A DNA stretch of 64,000 nt from a virus: IMG/VR virus record IMGVR_UViG_3300030117_007673, positions 62,001 through 126,000 of that record; one strand, written 5' to 3'. This document shows, piece after piece, positions 16,310 through 56,972 of the stretch. The translations under genes were made by a program, and so were the position numbers. Below the pieces are notes generated by a model, which was not told the origin of the DNA, searched no databases, and saw only the letters and a list, made by a program, of their open reading frames with translations. How positions within the stretch are numbered: the first letter of the stretch is position 1; every line of letters begins with the position of its first letter.

Positions 16310-19204
16310 ATGCCAGCACAGAATTTTAAATTTGTTTCGCCCGGAATTTTTATTAATGAAATTGACAATTCGCAGCTTACTGCGACCCCCGAAAATATTG
16401 GACCACTTGTTATTGGACGCTCAGAAAGAGGTCCTTCACTAAGACCAGTTAAAGTTGATTCTTTTTCGGAATTTGTAGAAATTTTTGGTAATCCAATCCC
16501 CGGTGGAAAGGGCGGAGATATTTGGAGAGATGGCAACTATACGGCTCCGACATACGCTGTATATGCAGCCCAGGCATGGTTGCGAAATAATTCTCCCCTT
16601 ACTTTCATTAGACTACTTGGAGATCAGCACACAAATGCAACTTCTGCTGGATATGCCGGCTGGAAACAATCTACAGTTTCAGAAACTCCTGGTGGAGCTT
16701 ATGGGCTTTGGCTTTTTGATAGATATACAACCCCAGAGATTAGTCCATTTACTCAGGGTCAAATGACTGCTTCTCTCGGAGCTGTTTTCTATACAGATAC
16801 CAGTACTTCTCTTGTTCTCTCCGGTGGGCACTCTGCCGTAGATAGAGCAGACCCCGCAGCAGCTGCTCAAGATTGGGTAGGTGGCGCGGAAGGTCAAGGC
16901 GTTCTTCGTGGCTCAGGCTCAGCGGATAGTGACTGGGTAATGTTGATTAACGGAACAAATGGAGACAAAGGCACGGAGAAAATTAGCTTTAACTTCAATA
17001 GAAATAGTGATAAATATATTAGAAAAGTGTTCAACACCAATCCAACGCTTTTGAATTCAACTATCACCTCTGGTAACAAGTACGGTTATTGGCTTGGTGA
17101 GAGCTATGACAGTCATATTGAACATCACGGCGGATTGATTTCTTATGCTGCTATTACAGGACTCTCGTCAAAAGACTCCTCACCAAAGGATTGGTCAGAT
17201 TGGAACTTCGGCGTGAAAAGAGGTGAAACTGGCTACTTTATCGCTCAAGATTTGGGCGTTGCTTCCAACTTCAAAGCAGAGCATGCTCAGAAATTATTTA
17301 AGCTTGTAGCTCTAGATGGCGGCGAAAGTCTTCAAAAGATGGCTAAAGTATCTATTATGGATATTAAACCGTCTTCAAATGACTTCGATCCATATGGAAC
17401 ATTCACCATCGCCTTGAGACATCTTGGAGATACTGATAATGCTCCTGTGTATCTTGAAAAATTCTCAAATTGTAGTTTGAACCCTAATTCTTCAAATTAT
17501 ATCGCAAGAAAGATTGGAGATATGTATAGCGACTGGGATGATGTAGAGAAAAGATATAAGCATTACGGCGCTTATCCAAACGCCTCTAAGTTTTGTAGAG
17601 TAGTTGTTAACGATCAAGTTGCCGAAGGTGTTGCAGATGCGCGATATCTTCCAGTTGGTGTTATCGGACCTTCGAGAATGAAGACTTTCTCCTTCTCGGG
17701 AAGTGCAGAAAATACTGATAATAAATTCTTTGTAACTAGTGACTCCGATATCGTTTCTGGTGCCTCGGATACTGCTCTTTTGACAGGAAGCCAGCATCAA
17801 TTCCATCATGTTTCTGGTGCAAGCTCAAATGTTAAATGGCAATTCCCCAAACTTCCACTTCGTAACATGTCAACAGATGACGATCTTGCGAATCCGCAAT
17901 TGGCGTTCTGGGGAGTCAGAACAAATCGTAGTGGATCTACAAGATTCGATGAGAGCGTTACCGATGTGACAAGAATTGGATTCCCAGGAACCAGCGCTAC
18001 TCCAGCCTCTGTTGACTCTACCTACTTAGAAGATTCATTCATCTTCACGTTGGATGATATCGCTAGAATGTCTTCTGGCAACACTTCCGGTAGTTATCAA
18101 TATGTTTCCGGTAGTCGAACCGGTAATTTCTCTGTGTCTGCACAGAGTGGTTCTTCCTATTTGCTAGAGAATGCAAAACTAAATCGATTTACGACAGTTT
18201 TCGCTGGAGGCTTCGACGGCTTAGATGTCAAGGAAAGAGAACCATTTAGAAATACAAAATTGGGAACTACAAATTCCACTGAATTAAACAATTACGCTTT
18301 CTACTCAGTTAAAAGAGCGATTGATGCAGCCTCAGATGCAGAAGTTGTAGAATACAATTTGGCAACTATTCCAGGTGTAAACAATACCTCATTAACTGAA
18401 CATCTAATCAAAGTTTGTGAAGATCGCGGAGACGCCCTGGCAATTATCGATTTGGAGAATGACTATGTTCCAGACACAGAAGGTACTTCTGCAGAGACTA
18501 GTCGTCTTCCAGAGCCCGAACAAGCCGTAACGTCCCTAAGACAAAGAGGTCTTAACACAAGTTATGGTTGCGCTTACTTCCCATGGGTACAGATTAGAGA
18601 TACTCTCGCTAATCAATTGCTCTGGGCTCCACCTTCAGTTGTAGCTCTTGGCACCATGGCATACAGTGAAAGACAGGAAGAACTTTGGTTCGCTCCCGCA
18701 GGCTTCACCAGAGGTGGGCTTAGCGAAGGTGCCGCAGGTATTCCAGTCACTAATGTGAAAATGCAGTTGAACTCGAGAGAAAGAGATCGACTCTATGCGG
18801 CTAATATTAACCCGATTGCTTCATTCCCAGCAGAAGGTCTTGTAGTGTTTGGTCAAAAGACCCTCCAAGTAACACCATCTGCTCTTGATAGAGTCAATGT
18901 TCGTCGTCTGCTAATTCACCTCAAGAAGGAAGTTTCTAGAATTGCAGCCACTACATTGTTCGAGCAAAATGTGCAATCAACTTGGAATAGATTTGCCGGT
19001 CAGGTTGAAGTATTCCTTAACGATGTTAAATCTGGCTTAGGTTTGACGGACTTCAGGGTCGTATTGGATGAAACTACGACGACTCCTGAATTAGTTGATA
19101 GAAACATTCTTTACGCAAAGGTATTCCTTAAACCGGCCCGCGCTATTGAGTTCATCGCTTTGGACTTTGTTATCACCGATACAGGTGCATCATTCGCAGA
19201 TTAA
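16310..19204 (+). CDS. gp18: Contractile tail sheath protein (T4 gp18-like), oversized
   Basis: Sheath subunit that contracts to drive the tube through the host envelope. The N-terminus (VSPGIFINEIDNSQL) and the end (AIEFIALDFVITDTG) are characteristic of the sheath superfamily, as are GLVVFGQKTL and the LIHLKKEVSRIAATTLFEQN helix in the conserved C-terminal region. At 964 residues it is about 300 longer than T4 gp18 (659); the surplus lies in the middle (residues about 150-620), where sheath proteins carry surface-exposed insertion domains. GAGGAGA precedes the ATG. Tube gene follows. Confidence 0.93.
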   Translation: MPAQNFKFVSPGIFINEIDNSQLTATPENIGPLVIGRSERGPSLRPVKVDSFSEFVEIFGNPIPGGKGGDIWRDGNYTAPTYAVYAAQAWLRNNSPLTFIRLLGDQHTNATSAGYAGWKQSTVSETPGGAYGLWLFDRYTTPEISPFTQGQMTASLGAVFYTDTSTSLVLSGGHSAVDRADPAAAAQDWVGGAEGQGVLRGSGSADSDWVMLINGTNGDKGTEKISFNFNRNSDKYIRKVFNTNPTLLNSTITSGNKYGYWLGESYDSHIEHHGGLISYAAITGLSSKDSSPKDWSDWNFGVKRGETGYFIAQDLGVASNFKAEHAQKLFKLVALDGGESLQKMAKVSIMDIKPSSNDFDPYGTFTIALRHLGDTDNAPVYLEKFSNCSLNPNSSNYIARKIGDMYSDWDDVEKRYKHYGAYPNASKFCRVVVNDQVAEGVADARYLPVGVIGPSRMKTFSFSGSAENTDNKFFVTSDSDIVSGASDTALLTGSQHQFHHVSGASSNVKWQFPKLPLRNMSTDDDLANPQLAFWGVRTNRSGSTRFDESVTDVTRIGFPGTSATPASVDSTYLEDSFIFTLDDIARMSSGNTSGSYQYVSGSRTGNFSVSAQSGSSYLLENAKLNRFTTVFAGGFDGLDVKEREPFRNTKLGTTNSTELNNYAFYSVKRAIDAASDAEVVEYNLATIPGVNNTSLTEHLIKVCEDRGDALAIIDLENDYVPDTEGTSAETSRLPEPEQAVTSLRQRGLNTSYGCAYFPWVQIRDTLANQLLWAPPSVVALGTMAYSERQEELWFAPAGFTRGGLSEGAAGIPVTNVKMQLNSRERDRLYAANINPIASFPAEGLVVFGQKTLQVTPSALDRVNVRRLLIHLKKEVSRIAATTLFEQNVQSTWNRFAGQVEVFLNDVKSGLGLTDFRVVLDETTTTPELVDRNILYAKVFLKPARAIEFIALDFVITDTGASFAD

Positions 19205-19260: not shown

Positions 19261-19785
19261 ATGGCAAATAATAGATTTTGGGCCGATAGTAGACTAGAGC
19301 CAAAAAGGCAGCATAGGTGGCTTCTTTTTATAGGTGGGCGGGCAAAGATCCCCGCGTACATCATCAAAAAGGTTGATAAACCAAAGATTACAGTTAACTC
19401 AACTGAGCATAAGTTTTTTGGTCACTCCTTCTTCTACCCAGGTCATGTTACTTGGGATCAAACAGCAGTAACGCTTGTTGATCCTATTGACCCGGACACT
19501 TCCAATATTCTTTATGGAGCTATTCGTGCGGCAGGTTATGATCCTCCCACTGATAGAGATGGAGACGCCCCTCACACCGTATCAAAGGCGAAAGCCACGA
19601 ATCATTTAGGTCAGATTAGACTCCAGCAAATGGATCCTGATAATAAGCCAGTTGAAACTTGGAAATTATTCAATCCATGGATCTTAGATGTAGCCTGGGG
19701 ATCGCTTGATTATTCGTCTGACGATATGGTAGAGCTTCAGGTGACTTTCCGTTACGATTATGCTACCTATAAGCGAGGCGGATAA
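19261..19785 (+). CDS. gp19: Tail tube protein (T4 gp19-like)
   Basis: A 174-residue protein following the sheath gene. Features of tube proteins include the N-terminal RHRW-like segment (KRQHRWLLFIGG), FYPGHVTWDQTAVTLVDP and a C-terminal beta pattern LDVAWGSLDYSSDDMVELQVTFRYDYA. It is close in length to T4 gp19 (163). It polymerises on the tape measure into the inner tube. GAGGAGA Shine-Dalgarno upstream. A short gap separates it from the tail-assembly gene. Confidence 0.9.
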   Translation: MANNRFWADSRLEPKRQHRWLLFIGGRAKIPAYIIKKVDKPKITVNSTEHKFFGHSFFYPGHVTWDQTAVTLVDPIDPDTSNILYGAIRAAGYDPPTDRDGDAPHTVSKAKATNHLGQIRLQQMDPDNKPVETWKLFNPWILDVAWGSLDYSSDDMVELQVTFRYDYATYKRGG

Positions 19786-19801: not shown

Positions 19802-20650
19802 ATGACAGTTAGAAATAACGAGGATCGAGTAGGTGCTCCGATCCAAGACAGCGCTCCTGTAGAGCAAATGGCACAAAGCAATGAAACTTTTTCATTCGCC
19901 ACACCTACCGAATTTGTTGATTTACCAACAAAGGGTAAGTGCTATCCTGAAGGTCATCCACTGTACAACCAAGAGACAGTGGAGATTCGTTACATGACCG
20001 CAAAAGACGAGGATATTTTAACCTCCCAATCTCTTTTAAAGAAGGGGTTGGCAATTGACAGGCTCTTGCAGAATGTCATTGTCGACAAAAGTATAAAAGT
20101 TGGCGAACTTTACACAGGCGATAAAAATGCCATTCTTATTGCAGCAAGAATCACAGGGTATGGTGAAGATTATTCTGCCAATTTAACCTGTCCAGCTTGC
20201 GGTCATGTTGAGAGACATGATTTTAATTTGTCTGATGTAAGGATTAACCACGGAGAAGATGAAGTGCCCGGCGTTACGAGAACGAAGAACAATACTTTTG
20301 TTTTTGAATTGCCTAAAAGTAAAGTGTCAGTTGAAGTAAAGATGATAACCGGACTTGAAGAGAAAAAGTTGTCTGACTTGGCTGAAAAGCGTAAAAAGTT
20401 AAAAATGCCTGAAGCTCCCTTGACGGACCAATTCAGATCTATAATCGTGTCCGTCAACGGACACACAAGCAAAGACGCTTTAGAGTCTTTTATTGAAAAT
20501 ATGCCGGCACTTGATTCCAAATATCTCAGGGGAATGTACGCTAGAATCACTCCCAATGTAGACATGACGCAAGTTGTAACTTGCTCTAATTGCTCTAGTG
20601 AATCGGAGGTACAGATACCGTTCACGGTAGACTTTTTTTGGCCTAAGTGA
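19802..20650 (+). CDS. Zinc-ribbon tail-assembly / baseplate-hub protein (T4 gp26-like), frame-0 product
   Basis: A 282-residue protein resembling the T4 baseplate hub assembly family (gp26/gp51-type): VDLPTKGKCYPEGHPL and EIRYMTAKDEDILTS near the N-terminus, and a zinc ribbon from CPACG (Cys130, Cys133) and CSNC near residue 263. It sits exactly between tail tube and tape measure, the position of tail-assembly chaperones in most long-tailed phages. The frame closes shortly after a run of seven T (20633-20639); the +1 frame then continues for 61 codons with family-like sequence, so a longer frameshifted product is likely (see next entry). Confidence 0.8.
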   Translation: MTVRNNEDRVGAPIQDSAPVEQMAQSNETFSFATPTEFVDLPTKGKCYPEGHPLYNQETVEIRYMTAKDEDILTSQSLLKKGLAIDRLLQNVIVDKSIKVGELYTGDKNAILIAARITGYGEDYSANLTCPACGHVERHDFNLSDVRINHGEDEVPGVTRTKNNTFVFELPKSKVSVEVKMITGLEEKKLSDLAEKRKKLKMPEAPLTDQFRSIIVSVNGHTSKDALESFIENMPALDSKYLRGMYARITPNVDMTQVVTCSNCSSESEVQIPFTVDFFWPK

Positions 20651-20825
20651 TGAGTATATAGAGCAAGTGTATGAGACATTCTTCTTTTTAAAGTATCATG
20701 GAGGATTCAGTTTTACCGAAGCTTATAACCTTCCGGTCAAAATTAGAGCATGGTTCACTCAAAGATTAATCAATCAACTCGAAACAGAGCGAGAAGAAGT
20801 AGAAAAGGCGCAAGGAAAGAGATAA
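20640..20825 (+). CDS. +1 frameshift extension of the tail-assembly protein
   Basis: Open frame without its own good start, entered if ribosomes slip +1 (or -2) on TTT TTT TGG: the P-site tRNA-Phe can re-pair on the same TTT one base on, and the next codon is GGC. It adds 61 residues starting GLSDEYIEQVYETFFFLKYH and ending in a charged helix (EREEVEKAQGKR). The segment GGFSFTEAYNLPVKIRAWF is clearly protein-like. The fusion would be about 340 residues. Alternatives are a homopolymer sequencing error or a separate gene from the GTG at 20667. Tail-assembly chaperone frameshifts are conserved in tailed phages, supporting real expression. Confidence 0.75.
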   Translation, partial: GLSDEYIEQVYETFFFLKYHGGFSFTEAYNLPVKIRAWFTQRLINQLETEREEVEKAQGKR

Positions 20826-20867: not shown

Positions 20868-21206
20868 ATGGCAAAGCTAAACGAAGACAAAATTTCAGAA
20901 GTAACAATTGATTTCTCAAAGATCAGAGATAAGAGAATTGATGAAAGTTATTTGACACAACTTGGTACTGTTGTTGGGTACGCCTTGGAAAAGATGTTTG
21001 CAGGAGCTGGAACTCTATTGAATGTCCGTGGAACTAATGCGGAAATTGGAGCGTTCTTAACCGCCCTGACAGCGGAAAAAAATTACCTTCAAAAGTTTAT
21101 GCAATATGGACTTGGAGACAAAAAGACTTATGAGTCTCGTTATAAGTTAGACTCTGCCGTTAAGAATTTTGAAAGAGAAACCGGTTTAAAGTGGCCGATG
21201 AAATAA
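20868..21206 (+). CDS. Small tail-assembly-region protein, unknown
   Basis: A 112-residue helical protein with no recognised domain, placed between the tail-assembly protein and the tape measure. It starts AKLNEDKISEVTIDFSKI and contains a central hydrophobic helix (GTVVGYALEKMFAGAGTLL). AGAGGA precedes the ATG. Position suggests a second chaperone or tape-measure partner; this is inference only. Confidence 0.75.
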   Translation: MAKLNEDKISEVTIDFSKIRDKRIDESYLTQLGTVVGYALEKMFAGAGTLLNVRGTNAEIGAFLTALTAEKNYLQKFMQYGLGDKKTYESRYKLDSAVKNFERETGLKWPMK

Positions 21207-21218
21207 GGGGCTTAACCG

Positions 21219-23840
21219 ATGGCAGATGAAAAAGACATAAAAGCTGAATTAAAAGTACAAGAATTACAAAAAGTAAGAGCTGATTTTATAAAGAAAGAAT
21301 TGGAAGCTCAAGAGAAGCTTACAAAATTAAAAAATAAATATGTTTCAGAATTAGATCTAGAAATACAGAGAAGAAAAACCGTTGCTGAGCTTGACGAAGA
21401 ATACGTAGATGTGCTAATGGCCACAAACGAATCGTTAAAATCTCAGTTAGAAACTAGAAAACAGAACCTCGAAAAAGCCATCGAAGAGGGGAAAATTACT
21501 GCACAGCAGCAAAAAGCCGACGAAGAAAAAATAGCGCATCTCGAAGCGATGAACGCGCTCACCAAAGAACAACGTGAAGAGTTAGCTAAGGAGTACTCCG
21601 AAAGAGTCAAAATCAATCAAGAGTTTGAAAAGACTGTTGGCCATGCCACCGCCTTTGGCAAAAGAATGACTGGTCTTCTCGGATTGGGGATAGACTTCGG
21701 TGATACATTTATTGGAGGGCTTGCGAATTCAGGCAAGCTAATGCTAGATTTAACTGCCAAATCAGGAAATCTTGGTAAAGTTATGAGTAGCAAACTGATG
21801 TCAATGGGGCCGCAGCTTCTTGGGTTGGTGGCGACTAGAACAGAGGAGCTTTTTACAGCTACAGATAGTCTGGTTTCAGGTTTTGTTAGGGCAACCGGAG
21901 CAAATGAAGAATTTAGAGATTCTTTGATCGATGGAATGAATGCGGCTCGTGGAATGGGCCTATCCATTCAAAATGCAGGTGTGGCAACGCAGGCACTTTT
22001 TGAAAGCACAGTAGCGTTCAGAAGGGCTTCGGCACAAGGTCGAGAAAGCATGATTCTTTTCACCTCTACTTTAGAACAAGCAGGTGTAGACTCGCAAGCG
22101 ACAGCCAGAAACATACAAATACTTTCTAAGACCTTGAATATAGCCGGTGAGGATGCGGCAAAAGAAGCGAGTAAATTGGTGACGCTAGCCACAAGTATTG
22201 GACGACCAATAAGTCAAGTTTCCGCTGACTTTGCAGAGGCCGCAAGTACCATTTCTGCGCACGGTCAAGATATGATGCAGGTCTTTTCAGAGTTATCCGC
22301 AGCTTCAGAGGCAACAGGGTTGTCGATGGGTAATTTGTTGGGAATCGCAGCGCAATTTGACACTTTTGATTCTGCAGCATCTGCTGTTGGTAGATTAAAC
22401 AGTATTATGGGTGGACCATATCTCAACAGTATTGAGATGGTATATATGAGTGAATCCGAAAGAATCAGGGCAATGCTTGAAGCAACAGAATTGTCTGGCG
22501 TGTCTTTTGAATCAATGAGTAGGCTTGAGAGAAGGGCCTTCGCTGCTGCCGCCGGTATTACTGATATGGCGCAAGCCAATGAGTTGTTCTCTGGTGGCCT
22601 CGCCGCATATGATGATGCTCAAGCAAGAGCAGATCTTAATGCCGCTTCACAGGAAAAGTTAGCCGAGTTGGCGAAAGAGTCTACAACAATGTTTGAAAAT
22701 CTTTCGAACGCGTTAAATGCGTTAGCAGTGAGCATGGCACCGATTATAAACGTTTTTAGGTTAATGATTGAGGGACTGTCAATGTTTCTAAATCTTGGTG
22801 ATGGACTTATAGGCAAGCTTGTTGGTATCGGCGTTGCGATGAAGAGCGTAATTGTCTCTTTCAAACTTTTAATGATAGGCATGGCTAAACTCATACCTGT
22901 CTCTATGCAATGGAATATGATTGCAGCCATGTTGACAGCTAAACAAAGTTTCTTGGCCCTTAAAACTACTCTTGCCACGATAGCTCAAAAGGCCTACGCC
23001 GCCGCAATTGCAAAATGGAATGCTGTAAGTATATTACAAAAAGCTTTAATGATTGCGACTATACCACTATTAGCTGCAAAAACCGCCGGAACTATGTTGA
23101 TGACCGGCGCTTGGGGCTTAGCAAAGATAGCGGTGACAGCCTTTGGTATTGCTTTTAATGTAGCTACACTTGGCATACCTCTTCTAATTGCGGGAATTGT
23201 TGCAGCTATTGTAGGTATAGTTTACTACTGGGATGAAGTGACAGCAGCCTTTGGCACTGGGTTTGATTTTATTGCTGGTAAATTCAGCGATTTGGGAGCG
23301 TTTGTAAAAAACATGTTCACTGACGTCGGAACATTTTTGTTAGGACTGGTAGATTTATGGTTCCTTCCCCTACGAACGCTTATTAACAGTGTCCTTGGTG
23401 GAATAAATCTTGTCGCCGGCGCAGTGGGAAGCGATATGAAATTGAAACTTATACCAACAGTGACCGAAATGGCTGGAATGCAAGAGGGCGGCACGTTGAC
23501 TCAAGGATCTGCAATTGTAGGTGAGACAGCTGGCGGGCCTGAGTTGCTTACAAACACTCCTGCAGGTCCAAAGATCACACCATTGCCAGGTGGAGGTAAA
23601 GGTATAAATTCTGGAGCAAATCTTGTAGCCGCGCTGCAGGAAAACACAGCAACAATGAAGGCAATGATGGCTGCAACAGGCGGAGGAGGAGGAGGAGAAG
23701 GTGGAGATAGGCCAGCAGAGATAGTCGTAAATATGGGAACTCAACAACTTCGATTAGCCGCGAGAGTTCTTAATGGTGCAATTAATAATCTTCCCGAGAA
23801 GGACATTGCGCTTAGATATGACGGCGTAGGGAGAGCGTAG
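21219..23840 (+). CDS. Tail tape measure protein
   Basis: An 873-residue protein with an N-terminal coiled coil (residues 1-140), a helical middle, several hydrophobic helices (residues about 540-690; two or three could cross a membrane) and a glycine-rich C-terminal part with GGTLTQGSAIVGETAGGPELL, a motif seen at the end of many tape measures. Length, helical content, hydrophobic segments and place after tube and assembly genes identify it. It sets tail length and is expelled during ejection. At roughly 1.5 angstrom per residue the tail would be about 130 nm, a rough inference. Confidence 0.88.
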   Translation: MADEKDIKAELKVQELQKVRADFIKKELEAQEKLTKLKNKYVSELDLEIQRRKTVAELDEEYVDVLMATNESLKSQLETRKQNLEKAIEEGKITAQQQKADEEKIAHLEAMNALTKEQREELAKEYSERVKINQEFEKTVGHATAFGKRMTGLLGLGIDFGDTFIGGLANSGKLMLDLTAKSGNLGKVMSSKLMSMGPQLLGLVATRTEELFTATDSLVSGFVRATGANEEFRDSLIDGMNAARGMGLSIQNAGVATQALFESTVAFRRASAQGRESMILFTSTLEQAGVDSQATARNIQILSKTLNIAGEDAAKEASKLVTLATSIGRPISQVSADFAEAASTISAHGQDMMQVFSELSAASEATGLSMGNLLGIAAQFDTFDSAASAVGRLNSIMGGPYLNSIEMVYMSESERIRAMLEATELSGVSFESMSRLERRAFAAAAGITDMAQANELFSGGLAAYDDAQARADLNAASQEKLAELAKESTTMFENLSNALNALAVSMAPIINVFRLMIEGLSMFLNLGDGLIGKLVGIGVAMKSVIVSFKLLMIGMAKLIPVSMQWNMIAAMLTAKQSFLALKTTLATIAQKAYAAAIAKWNAVSILQKALMIATIPLLAAKTAGTMLMTGAWGLAKIAVTAFGIAFNVATLGIPLLIAGIVAAIVGIVYYWDEVTAAFGTGFDFIAGKFSDLGAFVKNMFTDVGTFLLGLVDLWFLPLRTLINSVLGGINLVAGAVGSDMKLKLIPTVTEMAGMQEGGTLTQGSAIVGETAGGPELLTNTPAGPKITPLPGGGKGINSGANLVAALQENTATMKAMMAATGGGGGGEGGDRPAEIVVNMGTQQLRLAARVLNGAINNLPEKDIALRYDGVGRA

Positions 23841-37698: not shown

Positions 37699-39081
37699 AT
37701 GACAAAAGAAGAGAGAGTAGATTTTTCAAAATATGGCAAGGACTTCCAAGAGAAGCTTTGCCAACTGATTCTGCAAGACAGAATGTTTTGCGATCAGATT
37801 GAAGAAGTTTTAGATATACAGTTTTTGGAATTGAGATACCTTCGAGTATTTGTGCAAAAGGTATTTCAGTATAGGATTAAATACGAAGTTCATCCAACGA
37901 CTCGCACAATGCTTACTTTGATGCGTTCTGAGTTGGATGATGAGAACGACGCGACACAAAAGCAAGTAAGAGATTATTTCTCCAGAATTTATAAGTCCGA
38001 CATGGAAGTTGAGGGGGAAGAGTATATCAAAGATACTGCTCTTGACTTCTGTAAAAAACAAGTCTTGAAAGAAGCCATGCTGAAAAGCGTCGGCCTTCTT
38101 AAAAACTCCTCTTTTGATGAGATATCTAACACAATCAATGAAGCTCTTAAATTAGGGTCTGATAATAATTTTGGTTACGATTATTTGAAAGATTTTGAAC
38201 AAAGATTTGAAATTAAAGTCAGGAACCCTGTTTCAACAGGCTGGGATCATATTGACAGGCTTTCCAAGGGTGGCTTAGGAAGAGGGGAGCTTGGAGTTGT
38301 TATTGCCCCTACTGGTGCTGGCAAATCAATGGTATTGGTTCATCTCGGTGCGCAAGCCGTTAAAGCAGGCAAGAATGTTGTTCACTATACCTTGGAATTA
38401 GCTGATACTGTGGTGGCGTCAAGATATGATAGTTGTATAACTGGAGTACAGCTTTCAGATTTGTTTACTTTCAAAGAGCAGATTTATGAAACTGTTCAAG
38501 ATCTTGACGGTGGCTTAATTGTGAAGGAATATCCAACAAAGTCCGCTTCAACTAGGACTCTAGAGAATCACCTCGAAAAATTGAGACAGCGTGATTTTAA
38601 AATTGACATGATCCTCGTTGATTACGGGGATCTTTTGAAACCAAATGTTATCCGAAAAGAGAAAAGAATGGAGTTAGAATCTACTTACGAAGAGTTAAGA
38701 GCGATAGCTCAAAAATTCAGCTGTCCAGTTTGGACAGCATCGCAAACTAATAGGTCCGGATTGAATGCTGAAGTCATAACAATGGAATCAATTTCAGAAG
38801 CGTTTAATAAATGCTTTGTTGCTGATTTTATCTTTTCGGTTTCCCGGACTATTGATGACAAAAATGCGAACACAGGAAGAATGTTTGTGGCTAAGAATAG
38901 ATTCGGTCCAGATGGACTTATTTATCCTTTACTAATGGACACTTCAAATGTTAAAATAGAAGTGTTGGAACCAACGGGTGAGACAGTTAATGATATTGTT
39001 GTTAAGTCAGCAAAAGAACAGGCAGAAGTACTAAAAGAAAAATACAAGGAGTTTAAAAATGGGAGAAAAGAAGGTGTTTGA
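37699..39081 (+). CDS. Replicative DNA helicase (DnaB / T4 gp41-like)
   Basis: A 460-residue RecA-fold hexameric helicase. An N-terminal helical domain (about 170 residues) is followed by GWDHIDRLSKGGLGRGEL, Walker A APTGAGKS (203-210), VHYTLELA, Walker B IDMILVDYGDLL and VWTASQTNRSG (motif H3/H4). It lacks an obvious fused primase. Unwinds the replication fork ahead of the phage polymerase. No separate primase or loader was recognised in the window. The 3' end overlaps the RNR gene by 23 bases. Confidence 0.9.
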   Translation: MTKEERVDFSKYGKDFQEKLCQLILQDRMFCDQIEEVLDIQFLELRYLRVFVQKVFQYRIKYEVHPTTRTMLTLMRSELDDENDATQKQVRDYFSRIYKSDMEVEGEEYIKDTALDFCKKQVLKEAMLKSVGLLKNSSFDEISNTINEALKLGSDNNFGYDYLKDFEQRFEIKVRNPVSTGWDHIDRLSKGGLGRGELGVVIAPTGAGKSMVLVHLGAQAVKAGKNVVHYTLELADTVVASRYDSCITGVQLSDLFTFKEQIYETVQDLDGGLIVKEYPTKSASTRTLENHLEKLRQRDFKIDMILVDYGDLLKPNVIRKEKRMELESTYEELRAIAQKFSCPVWTASQTNRSGLNAEVITMESISEAFNKCFVADFIFSVSRTIDDKNANTGRMFVAKNRFGPDGLIYPLLMDTSNVKIEVLEPTGETVNDIVVKSAKEQAEVLKEKYKEFKNGRKEGV

Positions 39082-41491
39082 CAGTGAAGAAGTTAAGGTA
39101 GCTACGCTAGAATATTTTAAGCAAGATAATTTGGCGACTAATGTTTGGATGACAAAATATGCTTTAAAAAACAAGAAAGGTCAGTTTGTTGAAAAAACTC
39201 CTGACGACATGCATAACCGACTAGCTGATGAGTTTGCTAGAATGGAGGAAAAGTTCGGAGGAGATTTGGCACTAGAAAGAGAAGAGATTTATGAGTTGTT
39301 AAAGGACTTTAAATATATCGTCCCACAAGGCTCCCCTATGATGGGTATTGGCAACAACTATGTGAACGTGTCTTTATCCAATTGTGTCGTTGTGGACTCT
39401 CCGAAAGATAATATCTCTTCAATTATGGATTCAGGTAAACATCTTGCCAATCTTTTCAAGCGCCGTTGTGGTGTTGGTCTTGATATCTCTGAACTCCGTC
39501 CCGAAAATGCCCCTGTAAACAACTCTGCTGGAACTACAACAGGGGCGTGGTCTTTTGCTGATTTTTACTCTTATGTCTGTCGTATGATTGGGCAGAATGG
39601 TCGACGTGGCGCTTTGATGATCACAATGGACGTGAGACATCCTGATATCGAGCAGTTTGTTGCAATGAAGCATGATCTGACAAAAGTAACAGGAGCAAAT
39701 GTTTCAGTTAAAATAAGTGATGACTTCATGAAAGCAGTTGAGAACAAAGAAAAGTTTACTTTGCAGTTCCCTGTCGAATCAGACAAGCCTTCGATCACTA
39801 AAGAGATCGAAGCAGGTGAATTGTGGGATCTTATCGTTGAGTCAGCGACAAAAACTGCAGAACCTGGGCTTATGATGTGGGATAACATCGTAAACAACCT
39901 GCCAGCGGAGAGTTATGCTGATGTTGGCTTTAAGACGATTACAACTAACCCTTGTGGAGAAATCCCTCTTTCTGCTTATGATAGTTGTCGATTGATTTCT
40001 ATTAATCTTAAGAACTTGGTAAAGAACCCCTTTAAAAAACCAGAGTTTGATTTTGATAAGTTACACGAAGTAGCTAGCAAGGCGATGAGATTATCAGATG
40101 ATCTTGTGGAGCTTGAAATCGAAAAACTTGAAAACATTATTAAAGTGTGCGATACAAAGGATGAGAGGCAGTTGTGGAAATCTCTTTTGAAGGCCTGTAA
40201 AGATGGAAGAAGAACAGGCCTAGGCACACATGGGTTAGCAGATGCTATCGCGTGTATGAACCTAAAATATGATTCGAAAGAGGCAGTAGAGGTAATTGAT
40301 AAAATTTATGAGACTTTGAGAGATGCTGCCTATTTGGAGAGCGTTAGTTTGGCCATGGAACGCGGAGCCTTTGGCGTCTTCGATTGGGACAAGGAAAAAG
40401 ACAACGAATATATCAAAAGGCTGCCAAAGAACATTCGTGAGGCGATTGAACAGTACGGAAGAAGAAATATTTCAATTCTTACCAATGCTCCAACAGGATC
40501 AGTTTCGATTATGTCTCAAACAAGTTCAGGACTTGAGCCAGTGTTTCGCAACTCTTACAGAAGAAGACGAAAGCTTTCTCATAACGAAAAAGATGTCACG
40601 CCGGATTTTGTTGATGAACTTGGAGATAAATGGTTGGAATATAATGTATTTCACCACAATCTGCAGGAATATATGGACTTGCTGGAGACAGAAGAGATTC
40701 CTGACTTTTTCGTCGAGAGCGATCAAATTGATTGGCCCAAGAGAGTAGATATTCAGGCTGCAATCCAAAAGAGCATTGATCATTCGATTAGTTCAACAAT
40801 TAACCTACCAAAGGGTACAGACCCCAGTGTTGTTGGCGAGCTTTATTTCGAAGGATGGAAAAAGGGACTAAAAGGTATCACAGTATATGTAGATGGAAGC
40901 AGAACTGGCGTTCTTGTGACTGATAACCAAGAAGCCGAGAAACAGTTTCCTCAAAACGGAGCACCTAAACGCCCAGAGGAGCTTCCTTGTGATATTCACC
41001 ACACTACAATTCAGGGTGAGAAGTGGACAATATTGGTTGGCTTATATGATAATAAACCATATGAAGTTCTTGGAGGTTTGTCTAACTTAATCGAGATTCC
41101 AAAGAAGCACAAGAAAGGAGTATTGTCAAAGCATAGCTTTAAGACAAAAAACAATCGCTATGACTTAACAATTGGAGAGGGAGACGATGAATTTGTAATT
41201 AAAGATGTTGTGACAGTCTTTGATAACCCAACAAATTCGGCATTCACAAGAATGATCTCTCTATCTCTTCGTCACGGTGCTAAGCCAAGTTTCTTGGTTG
41301 AACAGTTGCAAAAAGATCGAGACAGCGACATGTTCAGTTTTTCAAGGTGTGTTGCTAGAATTATGAAAAATTATATTCAGGATGGCGAGGTGCCCAGCGA
41401 CAAGGAGTGTCCTGCGTGCGGCGCAGAGACTTTAATCTATCAGGATGGCTGCGTTACTTGCTCCACCTGCGGTTATGCAAAATGTGGTTGA
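39059..41491 (+). CDS. nrdJ: Ribonucleotide reductase, class II (B12-dependent)
   Basis: An 810-residue reductase that makes dNTPs from ribonucleotides. Features include SLSNCVVVDS (active-site Cys), NPCGEIPLSAYDSC (catalytic region), TNAPTGSVSIMSQTSSGLEP and a C-terminal zinc/redox tail CPACG...CSTCGYAKCG. The absence of an adjacent beta subunit and the CxxCG tail point to the adenosylcobalamin-dependent class II enzyme, which works without oxygen-dependent radical formation but needs vitamin B12 from the host. The phage glutaredoxin (59020) or a host thioredoxin could be its reductant. Starts inside the helicase gene. Confidence 0.9.
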   Translation: MGEKKVFDSEEVKVATLEYFKQDNLATNVWMTKYALKNKKGQFVEKTPDDMHNRLADEFARMEEKFGGDLALEREEIYELLKDFKYIVPQGSPMMGIGNNYVNVSLSNCVVVDSPKDNISSIMDSGKHLANLFKRRCGVGLDISELRPENAPVNNSAGTTTGAWSFADFYSYVCRMIGQNGRRGALMITMDVRHPDIEQFVAMKHDLTKVTGANVSVKISDDFMKAVENKEKFTLQFPVESDKPSITKEIEAGELWDLIVESATKTAEPGLMMWDNIVNNLPAESYADVGFKTITTNPCGEIPLSAYDSCRLISINLKNLVKNPFKKPEFDFDKLHEVASKAMRLSDDLVELEIEKLENIIKVCDTKDERQLWKSLLKACKDGRRTGLGTHGLADAIACMNLKYDSKEAVEVIDKIYETLRDAAYLESVSLAMERGAFGVFDWDKEKDNEYIKRLPKNIREAIEQYGRRNISILTNAPTGSVSIMSQTSSGLEPVFRNSYRRRRKLSHNEKDVTPDFVDELGDKWLEYNVFHHNLQEYMDLLETEEIPDFFVESDQIDWPKRVDIQAAIQKSIDHSISSTINLPKGTDPSVVGELYFEGWKKGLKGITVYVDGSRTGVLVTDNQEAEKQFPQNGAPKRPEELPCDIHHTTIQGEKWTILVGLYDNKPYEVLGGLSNLIEIPKKHKKGVLSKHSFKTKNNRYDLTIGEGDDEFVIKDVVTVFDNPTNSAFTRMISLSLRHGAKPSFLVEQLQKDRDSDMFSFSRCVARIMKNYIQDGEVPSDKECPACGAETLIYQDGCVTCSTCGYAKCG

Positions 41492-55400: not shown

Positions 55401-56972
55401 ATGACAAAGAAATATGACTCAGGCCCTTCTCTGCAAGAGAAGATTCTGAAAGGTATTGACACTCTGGCTGACAACGTAGCGTCTACGCTCGGGCCTAGAG
55501 GTCGGAATGTTATCTTACACAAGAAGGGCTCCAATCCGATTATCACAAAGGATGGCGTGACTATTTCAAAGTTTGTTGATCTTGAAGATCCTTTTGAAAA
55601 TGTAGGAGCGCAAATTATCAAACAAGTCGCTGCGCGAACAGCAGATGAGTGTGGGGATGGCACAACAACCTCCACAGTGTTGGCCCGGGCATTGTTGCGA
55701 GAGACACAGAAATACATCGTAGCTGGCTCTTCTCCTGTAGAGATGAAGAGAGGCATGGACAAGGCTGTTTTGGCCATTGTAGGGCGATTAGAGGAGATGT
55801 CAAAGCCTATTTCTAGTGTGGAGGACATCGAACACATTGCGACTATCTCTGCAAACGGGGATAAGACAATTGGCAAATTGATCGCTAGCGCAGTTGAAGC
55901 TGCCGGCAAAGACGGTTCTATAAGTATTGAAGAAGCGCGCTCTGTAGAGACGAGCCTGGATCTTGTCGAAGGATTCAGATTTGATTCCGGCTATGTGTCT
56001 TCTCAATTTATCACAGATGAGCGTAGAGGCGCTGTAAAATATAACGAACCTTTGGTTCTGGTGACAGATTATGACATCGAGGCTGTTGATCAACTCCTCC
56101 CGGTGTTGGAGTTCGTTGCTAGAGAGAACAGGCCATTGGTTATTGTTTGTGAGAACATTGAAGGACAAGCTTTGGCTGCAGTTATCATGAACGCCATTAG
56201 GGGAACAATGAAGGTGACAGCTGTAAAGGCTCCACGTTATGGAGAGGAGAGAAGAAATATTCTTAAGGATTTGGCATTGTCTGTTGGCGCGGCTTTTGTT
56301 TCCAGAGATTCAGGGTTGCAGTTGAGAGACACAAAACTGTCTCATCTTGGAACTGCAAAGACTGTGGATATAGTAAAAAATGGAACTACTTTCGTTGGAG
56401 GGAAGGGCGACTTCGAAGAGATTGATAAGAAGATTGAGGCTTTGAAAGTTGAACTAGAACAGACAGATTCCCTGTATGAGTGTGAAAGGATTCAAGATAG
56501 AATCACAAGACTAGCTAGCGGGATTGCAATTATTCGAGTTGGTGGCGCTACGGAAATCGAAATGATCGAGAAGAGACATAGAGTTGAAGATGCTCTAGAA
56601 GCTGTTCATTCAGCACAGCAAGAGGGAATTGTTCCCGGTGGTGGTGTAGCTATAGTTAGAGCTTCTGCCAATCTGGAACTTGAGCTTGATAACGAGGATC
56701 AGGAGATTGGAGCAAAAATTGTATCCGAAGCTGTGAAGTCTCCAATTAAACAGATGGCTAAAAACGCAGGTGAGTCTCAGGATCTTATTTTGTATGAAGT
56801 TTTGTCACTGCATGGTAACGATGGTAGAGACTTTACGACTGGAGAAATTGTAGATATGTTAGAAGTGGGCATCATTGACCCCGCAAAAGTTACTAAAGCA
56901 GCGATTCAAAATGCTGTCTCCGCTGTATCGACATTAATTACTACAAATTATGCAATTATCGAGAACGATTAG
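55401..56972 (+). CDS. groEL: GroEL chaperonin
   Basis: A 523-residue 60-kDa chaperonin, essentially full length. ATPase residues are in place: GPRGRNVILHKKGS (nucleotide loop), KDGVTISK (Asp51), ECGDGTTTSTVL (Asp86) and the late Asp of VEDALEAVHSAQQ; the hinge VPGGGVA is conserved. The glycine/methionine GGM tail of bacterial GroEL is missing; it ends IIEND. With the phage GroES-like gene it would form a dedicated folding chamber, for example for capsid or other proteins. Few phages encode GroEL. It has a strong sigma70 promoter and no adjoining groES. Confidence 0.95.
   Translation: MTKKYDSGPSLQEKILKGIDTLADNVASTLGPRGRNVILHKKGSNPIITKDGVTISKFVDLEDPFENVGAQIIKQVAARTADECGDGTTTSTVLARALLRETQKYIVAGSSPVEMKRGMDKAVLAIVGRLEEMSKPISSVEDIEHIATISANGDKTIGKLIASAVEAAGKDGSISIEEARSVETSLDLVEGFRFDSGYVSSQFITDERRGAVKYNEPLVLVTDYDIEAVDQLLPVLEFVARENRPLVIVCENIEGQALAAVIMNAIRGTMKVTAVKAPRYGEERRNILKDLALSVGAAFVSRDSGLQLRDTKLSHLGTAKTVDIVKNGTTFVGGKGDFEEIDKKIEALKVELEQTDSLYECERIQDRITRLASGIAIIRVGGATEIEMIEKRHRVEDALEAVHSAQQEGIVPGGGVAIVRASANLELELDNEDQEIGAKIVSEAVKSPIKQMAKNAGESQDLILYEVLSLHGNDGRDFTTGEIVDMLEVGIIDPAKVTKAAIQNAVSAVSTLITTNYAIIEND

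What the first reader, a model, noticed from the sequence alone, without database searches (positions are those of the whole stretch)
20633..20825. +1 (or -2) frameshift extending the tail-assembly protein
The gp26-like gene in the tail-chaperone position ends just after seven T; the +1 frame continues for 61 codons with protein-like sequence and no start of its own, and P-site tRNA-Phe can slip exactly from TTT to TTT before TGG. Frameshifted tail-assembly chaperones are conserved in long-tailed phages, but mostly -1; +1 or -2 are rarer. A T4-type phage with this arrangement is notable.
Basis: partly seen in the sequence, partly recalled or inferred. Interest (0 to 1): 0.75.

Follow-up and report, generated by a model that had tools for sequence, protein, structure and literature searches.

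The report
Plus-one frameshift in tail-assembly chaperone
An uncultured T4-type phage most likely makes a short and a long form of its tail-assembly chaperone from one gene by letting some ribosomes skip one base at TTT-TGG, a signal kept almost unchanged in more than 200 relatives; the two-form chaperone is known in T4-like phages, but this conserved forward (+1) version appears to be a new variant.

Summary
The gp26-like gene (19802-20650; PF12322) ends GAC-TTT-TTT-TGG-CCT-AAG-TGA. The +1 frame opens at 20631, right after a TAG, and runs to 20825 with no start codon before GTG 20667, inside the conserved core. The signal is real: 120+ distinct relatives (<90% identical) keep [T/C]TT-TGG; the slip codon is TTT in 121 of 121 Phe cases, against about 77% at other conserved Phe positions; codon periodicity moves from frame 0 to frame +1 at this site. 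Variants TTT-CTT-TGG and TTC-TTT-TGG fit +1 P-site slippage and argue against -2 slippage, polymerase slippage and assembly error. Best reading: a +1 programmed frameshift making TAC-N (282 aa) and TAC-NC (340 aa), the lambda G/GT pair, between tail tube and tape measure. Cyanophages, KVP40, phiM12 and phiW-14 carry the related extension in the -1 frame after T_TTT_TTY; T4 has two genes, 26 and 51. Short/long chaperone pairs in T4-like phages are published (Vladimirov 2022, not readable here). The +1 YTT_TGG class and the direction switch within one family were not found in the papers searched. No protein-level evidence exists. New variant of a known kind.

The parts
19802..20650 (+). gp26-like gene = short chaperone form (TAC-N), 282 aa, ends VDFFWPK*
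   Evidence: PF12322 E=2.6e-19; phrog_150 baseplate hub 6.1e-21; AlphaFold model pLDDT 87
20628..20630 (+). TAG stop that closes the +1 frame just upstream of the slip site, so the extension cannot be entered from an upstream start
20633..20641 (+). slip site TTT TTT TGG: P-site TTT 20636-20638 slips +1 to TTT 20637-20639; A-site TGG 20639-20641
   Evidence: sequence; invariant in the clade apart from TTC at the first and CTT at the second codon
20648..20650 (+). 0-frame stop TGA of the short form
20640..20825 (+). +1-frame extension (TAC-C), 61 codons plus stop TAA; long form = residues 1-279 + 61 = 340 aa
   Evidence: homologous +1 extensions in Mel-JY01 (E=2e-5) and about 230 contigs; frame-periodicity switch
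16310..19204 (+). tail sheath (gp18-like), context
   Evidence: phrog_23 4.3e-67
19261..19785 (+). tail tube (gp19-like), context
   Evidence: phrog_4542 7e-26
20868..21206 (+). 112-aa ORF of unknown function between chaperone and tape measure, context
   Evidence: no family match
21219..23840 (+). tape measure protein, context
   Evidence: phrog_167 8.1e-6

Best explanation
[quoted passage not shown] Most ribosomes read to TGA 20648 and make the 282-aa short form. A minority stall with Phe-tRNA on TTT 20636-38 in the P site and the UGG Trp codon in the A site, slip one base forward onto TTT 20637-39, read GGC CTA..., and make a 340-aa long form carrying a 61-residue C-terminal extension. By analogy with lambda gpG/gpGT, many short and few long copies coat the tape measure protein encoded just downstream, and the extension recruits the gp19-like tube protein; neither form stays in the virion. 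Shown here: the site, the conserved change of coding frame, homology of the short form to T4 gp26/gp51, and gene order. Inferred: that the shift happens in cells, its efficiency, the role of the Trp codon, and the binding partners.
For: Junction and extension conserved in about 150 + 78 viral contigs and 9 MAG contigs. Slip codon TTT in 121/121 Phe cases plus 3 CTT among 124 sequences <90% identical; six other conserved Phe columns are 72-85% TTT. The lowest-information codon position is third-of-frame-0 upstream and third-of-frame-+1 downstream (0.47 and 0.55 bits), and likewise in the second clade. The window's +1 ORF cannot be entered by initiation before GTG 20667. Gene order tube-chaperone-tape measure (the same in immuto and SP-15). 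PF12322 also matches T4 gp26 and gp51. Profile comparison: window extension to second +1 clade E=6.8e-14, to cyanophage -1 extension 2e-4, and cyanophage extension to T4 gp51 tail 1.9e-10. Among PDB matches to the short-form model, all weak, are HK97 tail assembly chaperone 2ob9 (rank 2, prob 0.47, E 0.59) and YqbN 3klu (rank 24).
Against: No mass spectrometry, ribosome profiling or reporter data. No conserved stimulator found: SD-like motif upstream in only 19 of 121, downstream folding mean z -0.23, window itself z -0.39. The direct profile match of the window-clade extension to the T4 gp51 tail fails; the link runs through the cyanophage extensions. PDB fold matches are not significant. Sequences share ancestry, so 121/121 is not 121 independent trials.
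Confidence: 0.88

Rival explanations
1. The extension is a separate small gene translated by termination-reinitiation, as annotated (gp51) in cyanophages and KVP40.
For: Annotated so in P-SSM2, S-PM2 and KVP40, with an ATG just after the gp26 stop; TGATG overlap at 20648-20652 in the window.
Against: The window's ATG 20651 is in the wrong frame and dies after three codons. No start codon lies between TAG 20628 and GTG 20667, inside the conserved core. In 26 of 120 relatives no ATG/GTG/TTG lies between the upstream +1 stop and the core. In the -1 group HTVC008M and L277/L279-L281 lack the ATG but keep the heptamer. Slip codons are kept beyond protein need.
Confidence: 0.05
2. -2 frameshifting on the T7 run, as in phage Mu.
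For: Same downstream frame; seven T allow P-site re-pairing two bases back.
Against: Relatives with TTT-CTT-TGG (4 in the first set, 34 in the second clade) and TTC-TTT-TGG (6) keep the +1 re-pairing (YTT to TTT) but break -2 re-pairing.
Confidence: 0.04
3. Polymerase slippage on T7, or an assembly error in the T run.
For: T7 is a slippage-prone run, and no raw reads were available.
Against: The same T7 stands in 144 of 154 separately assembled contigs; variants with runs of only 3-4 T keep the same frame relation.
Confidence: 0.03

Closest known systems
T4-like tail assembly chaperones, T4 gp26 (short) and gp51 (long); frameshifted versions in other T4-like phages (Vladimirov, Gautam and Davidson 2022, Virology 566:9-15; known here only through citing papers PMC12846349 and PMC10885494)
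   Same: Same family PF12322; short form plus a C-terminal extension; tail-gene location; extension related through the cyanophage versions.
   Different: T4 uses two genes. The cyanophage, KVP40, phiM12 and phiW-14 junctions are -1 at T_TTT_TTY; here the shift is +1 at YTT_TGG.
Lambda gpG/gpGT and other long-tailed-phage chaperone pairs
   Same: [quoted passage not shown] a 2016 review called this widely conserved 'except T4' (PMC5009743).
   Different: Lambda shifts -1; different protein family. A +1 case is suggested for haloarchaeal myovirus HSTV-2 in the same review, and forward shifts are in the PRFect training set (350 forward, 2368 backward sites).
E. coli prfB (RF2) +1 site CUU_UGA and influenza PA-X UCC_UUU_CGU
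   Same: P-site YUU slipping +1 before a slow A-site codon; some relatives here have exactly CTT-TGG, and Streptococcus phage GXN1 has TTC-TTT-CGT.
   Different: RF2 uses a stop codon and an upstream SD-like stimulator (own knowledge); here the A-site codon is Trp UGG and no stimulator is conserved.

Membership tests
Frameshifted tail assembly chaperone (TAC-N/TAC-NC) | gene between major tail (tube) protein and tape measure | tested here: met
   tube 19261-19785 and tape measure 21219-23840
Frameshifted tail assembly chaperone (TAC-N/TAC-NC) | overlapping downstream frame without its own start, entered at a slippery sequence conserved in relatives | tested here: met
Frameshifted tail assembly chaperone (TAC-N/TAC-NC) | both products made, long form the minority, absent from virions | not testable with these tools
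   needs mass spectrometry or a reporter
Frameshifted tail assembly chaperone (TAC-N/TAC-NC) | fold like a known TAC | tested here: inconclusive
   HK97 TAC 2ob9 second in the PDB list, E 0.59, prob 0.47
T4 gp26/gp51 family (PF12322) | profile match over the curated cut-off | tested here: met
   70.2 bits against cut-off 24.5; T4 gp26 and gp51 also match
T4 gp26/gp51 family (PF12322) | extension homologous to the gp51 C-terminus | tested here: inconclusive
   no direct match; linked through cyanophage extensions, E=2e-4 and 1.9e-10
-1 heptanucleotide (X_XXY_YYZ) frameshift | extension in the -1 frame after such a heptamer | tested here: not met
   extension is in the +1 frame; TTT_CTT_TGG and TTC_TTT_TGG variants
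RF2-type +1 site | upstream SD-like stimulator and in-frame stop at the A site | tested here: not met
   A site is TGG; SD-like motif in only 19/121

The most novel reading that the evidence does not exclude
A large, mostly uncultured half of the T4-type chaperone family uses a stimulator-free +1 frameshift at YUU_UGG, and the direction of a conserved programmed frameshift has switched (-1 to +1 or back) at the same Phe-Phe position of one gene family while a related C-terminal domain was kept, with a third branch (T4) splitting the two forms into separate genes.
Probability: 0.7. Interest if true: 0.65.

Novelty: new variant of a known kind. Interest (0 to 1): 0.5.

Why it matters
It gives a natural series (-1 site, +1 site, two separate genes, one possible in-frame fusion) for a single assembly gene, so the question of what fixes frameshift direction and product ratio can be tested by comparing homologues. 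It also defines a +1 signal (YUU_UGG) that searches for -1 heptamers would miss, and corrects phage annotations in which the extension is called a separate or truncated gene.

Tried and rejected
Separate gene with its own start: rejected as the main route. -2 shift and polymerase slippage: rejected by CTT and TTC variants. SD-like stimulator or downstream hairpin: not conserved. Link of the extension to DUF6760: only E 0.016-0.062, left as a lead; the plasmid collection gave no relatives, so contractile injection systems were not tested. Direct profile link of the window extension to the T4 gp51 tail failed. A multi-family alignment was too diverse for the contig scan. A full-length long-form fold was not made because the four-letter word TTTT also occurs elsewhere in frame. 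Exact slip codon in the SP-15/LIS04/GXN1 group (TTT-NNN or NCC-CGA) remains unresolved. The key prior paper (Vladimirov 2022) is not held.

Full report
Observation. The gene at 19802-20650 ends ...GTA GAC TTT TTT TGG CCT AAG TGA and the +1 frame continues from 20640 to 20825 (61 codons). In the +1 frame a TAG at 20628-20630 stands directly before the T run, and the first possible start is GTG 20667, inside the conserved core; ATG 20651 is in the third frame and stops after three codons. The 14-mer around the site is unique in the window.

Identity. The short form matches PF12322 (T4 base plate protein, 70 bits) and phrog_150 (baseplate hub); its neighbours are a gp18-like sheath, a gp19-like tube and a tape measure protein. 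The phage is T4-type by its gp23 (9e-72), gp20 (5e-74) and T4-type terminase. The record is a 132 kb virus contig, host unknown. T4 gp26 and gp51 both match PF12322; in gp51 the match covers residues 1-201 of 249, leaving about 48 residues as a C-terminal extension.

Conservation in relatives. Microcystis phage Mel-JY01 and Flavobacterium phage immuto have the same arrangement with the extension in the +1 frame. Two scans of IMG/VR gave 152 relatives. In this set, with Mel-JY01 and immuto added, the site is TTT-TTT-TGG in 144 of 154, TTC-TTT-TGG in 6 and TTT-CTT-TGG in 4. One contig, L093, keeps the site but has a frame disruption further downstream in the extension. A second clade, found with immuto as query, has 78 usable loci: TTT-TTT-TGG 40, TTT-CTT-TGG 34, TTT-CTA-TGG 4, all with +1 extensions. 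Nine MAG contigs, including a contig labelled WOR-3 chromosome, add eight TTT-TTT-TGG sites and one TTT-TTT-TTC.

Tests for a real frame change. Among 124 sequences less than 90% identical, the slip codon is Phe in 121, always TTT, and CTT in the other three. Six other conserved Phe columns of the same gene have 72-85% TTT, so codon bias does not explain it. Per-position information content shows the weakest codon position moving from the third position of frame 0 (0.47 bits upstream) to the third position of frame +1 (0.55 bits downstream), while the frame-0 third position becomes the strongest (1.52). The second +1 clade shows the same, and cyanophages move to the -1 frame. Selection on protein sequence therefore acts on frame 0 up to the site and on frame +1 after it.

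Direction and mechanism. CTT-TGG and TTC-TTT-TGG variants allow P-site re-pairing one base forward (YTT to TTT) but not two bases back, and have runs too short for efficient polymerase slippage; 144 separate assemblies with T7 argue against a base-count error. TGG follows in every window-clade member examined. No SD-like element (19/121) or downstream structure (mean z -0.23; window z -0.39) is conserved. The likely mechanism is P-site Phe (or Leu) slippage with the Trp codon waiting in the A site, resembling the RF2 CUU_UGA and PA-X UUU_CGU sites without their other features. This step is inferred, not shown.

Wider family. P-SSM2, S-PM2, HTVC008M, KVP40, phiM12 and phiW-14 have one PF12322 gene each, ending ...TTT TTY... 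with a -1 extension. In the cyanophage-type set (L202-L281) the gene has NNT-TTT-TTC just before its stop in 79 of 80; the exception is L251. The codon before is always AGT, TCT, GCT or AAT although gene-wide use of GCT and TCT among their synonyms is 31% and 54%. These extensions match the T4 gp51 tail (E=1.9e-10) and, more weakly, the window-clade extension (E=2e-4). T4, phage 31 and P4-3 carry separate genes 26 and 51, and RB43 has two PF12322 genes. SP-15, LIS04 and GXN1 are +1; RAS14 and LR756511 are -1. A quick tree puts the T4-type -1 and split members in one half and all +1 members together with RAS14 and LR756511 in the other, with three state changes at minimum; long branches make the deep order unsure. 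The direction has changed at least once.

Function. The short-form model (pLDDT 87) finds SP-15, CP220 and other T4-type hub proteins among predicted viral structures. In the PDB no match is significant, but HK97 tail assembly chaperone 2ob9 is second (E 0.59) and YqbN 3klu is also listed. With gene order and the lambda precedent (PMC5009743), tail-assembly chaperone is the best reading. [quoted passage not shown]

What is known. The 2016 recoding review excepted T4 from the conserved G-T frameshift. Vladimirov et al. [quoted passage not shown] citing papers say that some T4-like phages carry separate short and long (fusion) genes, and that poly-T -1 signals occur in TAC-N genes of T4-like phages. 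I could not read that paper; my recollection that it assigns genes 26 and 51 and a frameshift in several groups agrees with these citations. So the short/long pair and the split in T4 are not new. The conserved +1 class at YTT_TGG and the direction switch were not found in the papers searched.

Verdict. It is a new variant of a known kind; no protein-level proof exists.

Noticed in passing
L251 (IMGVR 3300049043_000112, 236 kb): A cyanophage-type relative has TCT-TTT-TGG-TTA-GGA-ATG: short form and extension are fused in frame (299 aa open frame), and no second PF12322 gene was found on the contig. A +1 slip at TTT-TGG would there meet TAG at once and make the short form; it could also be a sequencing indel.
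   Followed up: partly
L363, L364, L365 (P-SSM2, KVP40, S-PM2): The C-terminal extension is annotated as a separate small gene 'baseplate hub assembly catalyst' (gp51); the KVP40 note says it resembles 40 aa at the C-terminus of T4 gp51.
   Followed up: yes
L004:3833-3943, L007:3327-3446, L001:4300-4536: Public annotations call internal or upstream-started pieces of the extension separate hypothetical genes in immuto, SP-15 and Mel-JY01.
   Followed up: partly
L005:3203-3220: Streptococcus phage GXN1 has GAA-TTC-TTT-CGT-CCC-CGA at the junction; UUU_CGU equals the core of the influenza PA-X +1 site, but CCC-CGA is a second candidate.
   Followed up: no
L379 (Winogradskyella MAG contig): One +1 relative has TTT-TTT-TTC-CCT instead of TTT-TTT-TGG, so the Trp codon is not strictly required across the family.
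   Followed up: no
window 20640-20822; L143:3845-4018; L011:3842-4039: The extension matches DUF6760 weakly (E 0.016-0.062) at the same offset in three members; DUF6760 is, from memory, found in extracellular contractile injection systems, so those may carry the same chaperone pair.
   Followed up: partly
window 55401-56972 and 39059-41491: The phage encodes a GroEL-type chaperonin (phrog_5725, 1.6e-141) and a ribonucleotide reductase large subunit (phrog_84, 2.3e-117).
   Followed up: no
L373 (CP070664.1, 2762488-2771261): A 50% identical copy of the gene with the same slip site lies in a contig labelled WOR-3 bacterium chromosome: a prophage or a chimeric MAG.
   Followed up: no
L093: Slip site kept, but the extension changes frame about 30 nt further on, probably a sequencing indel in that contig.
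   Followed up: partly
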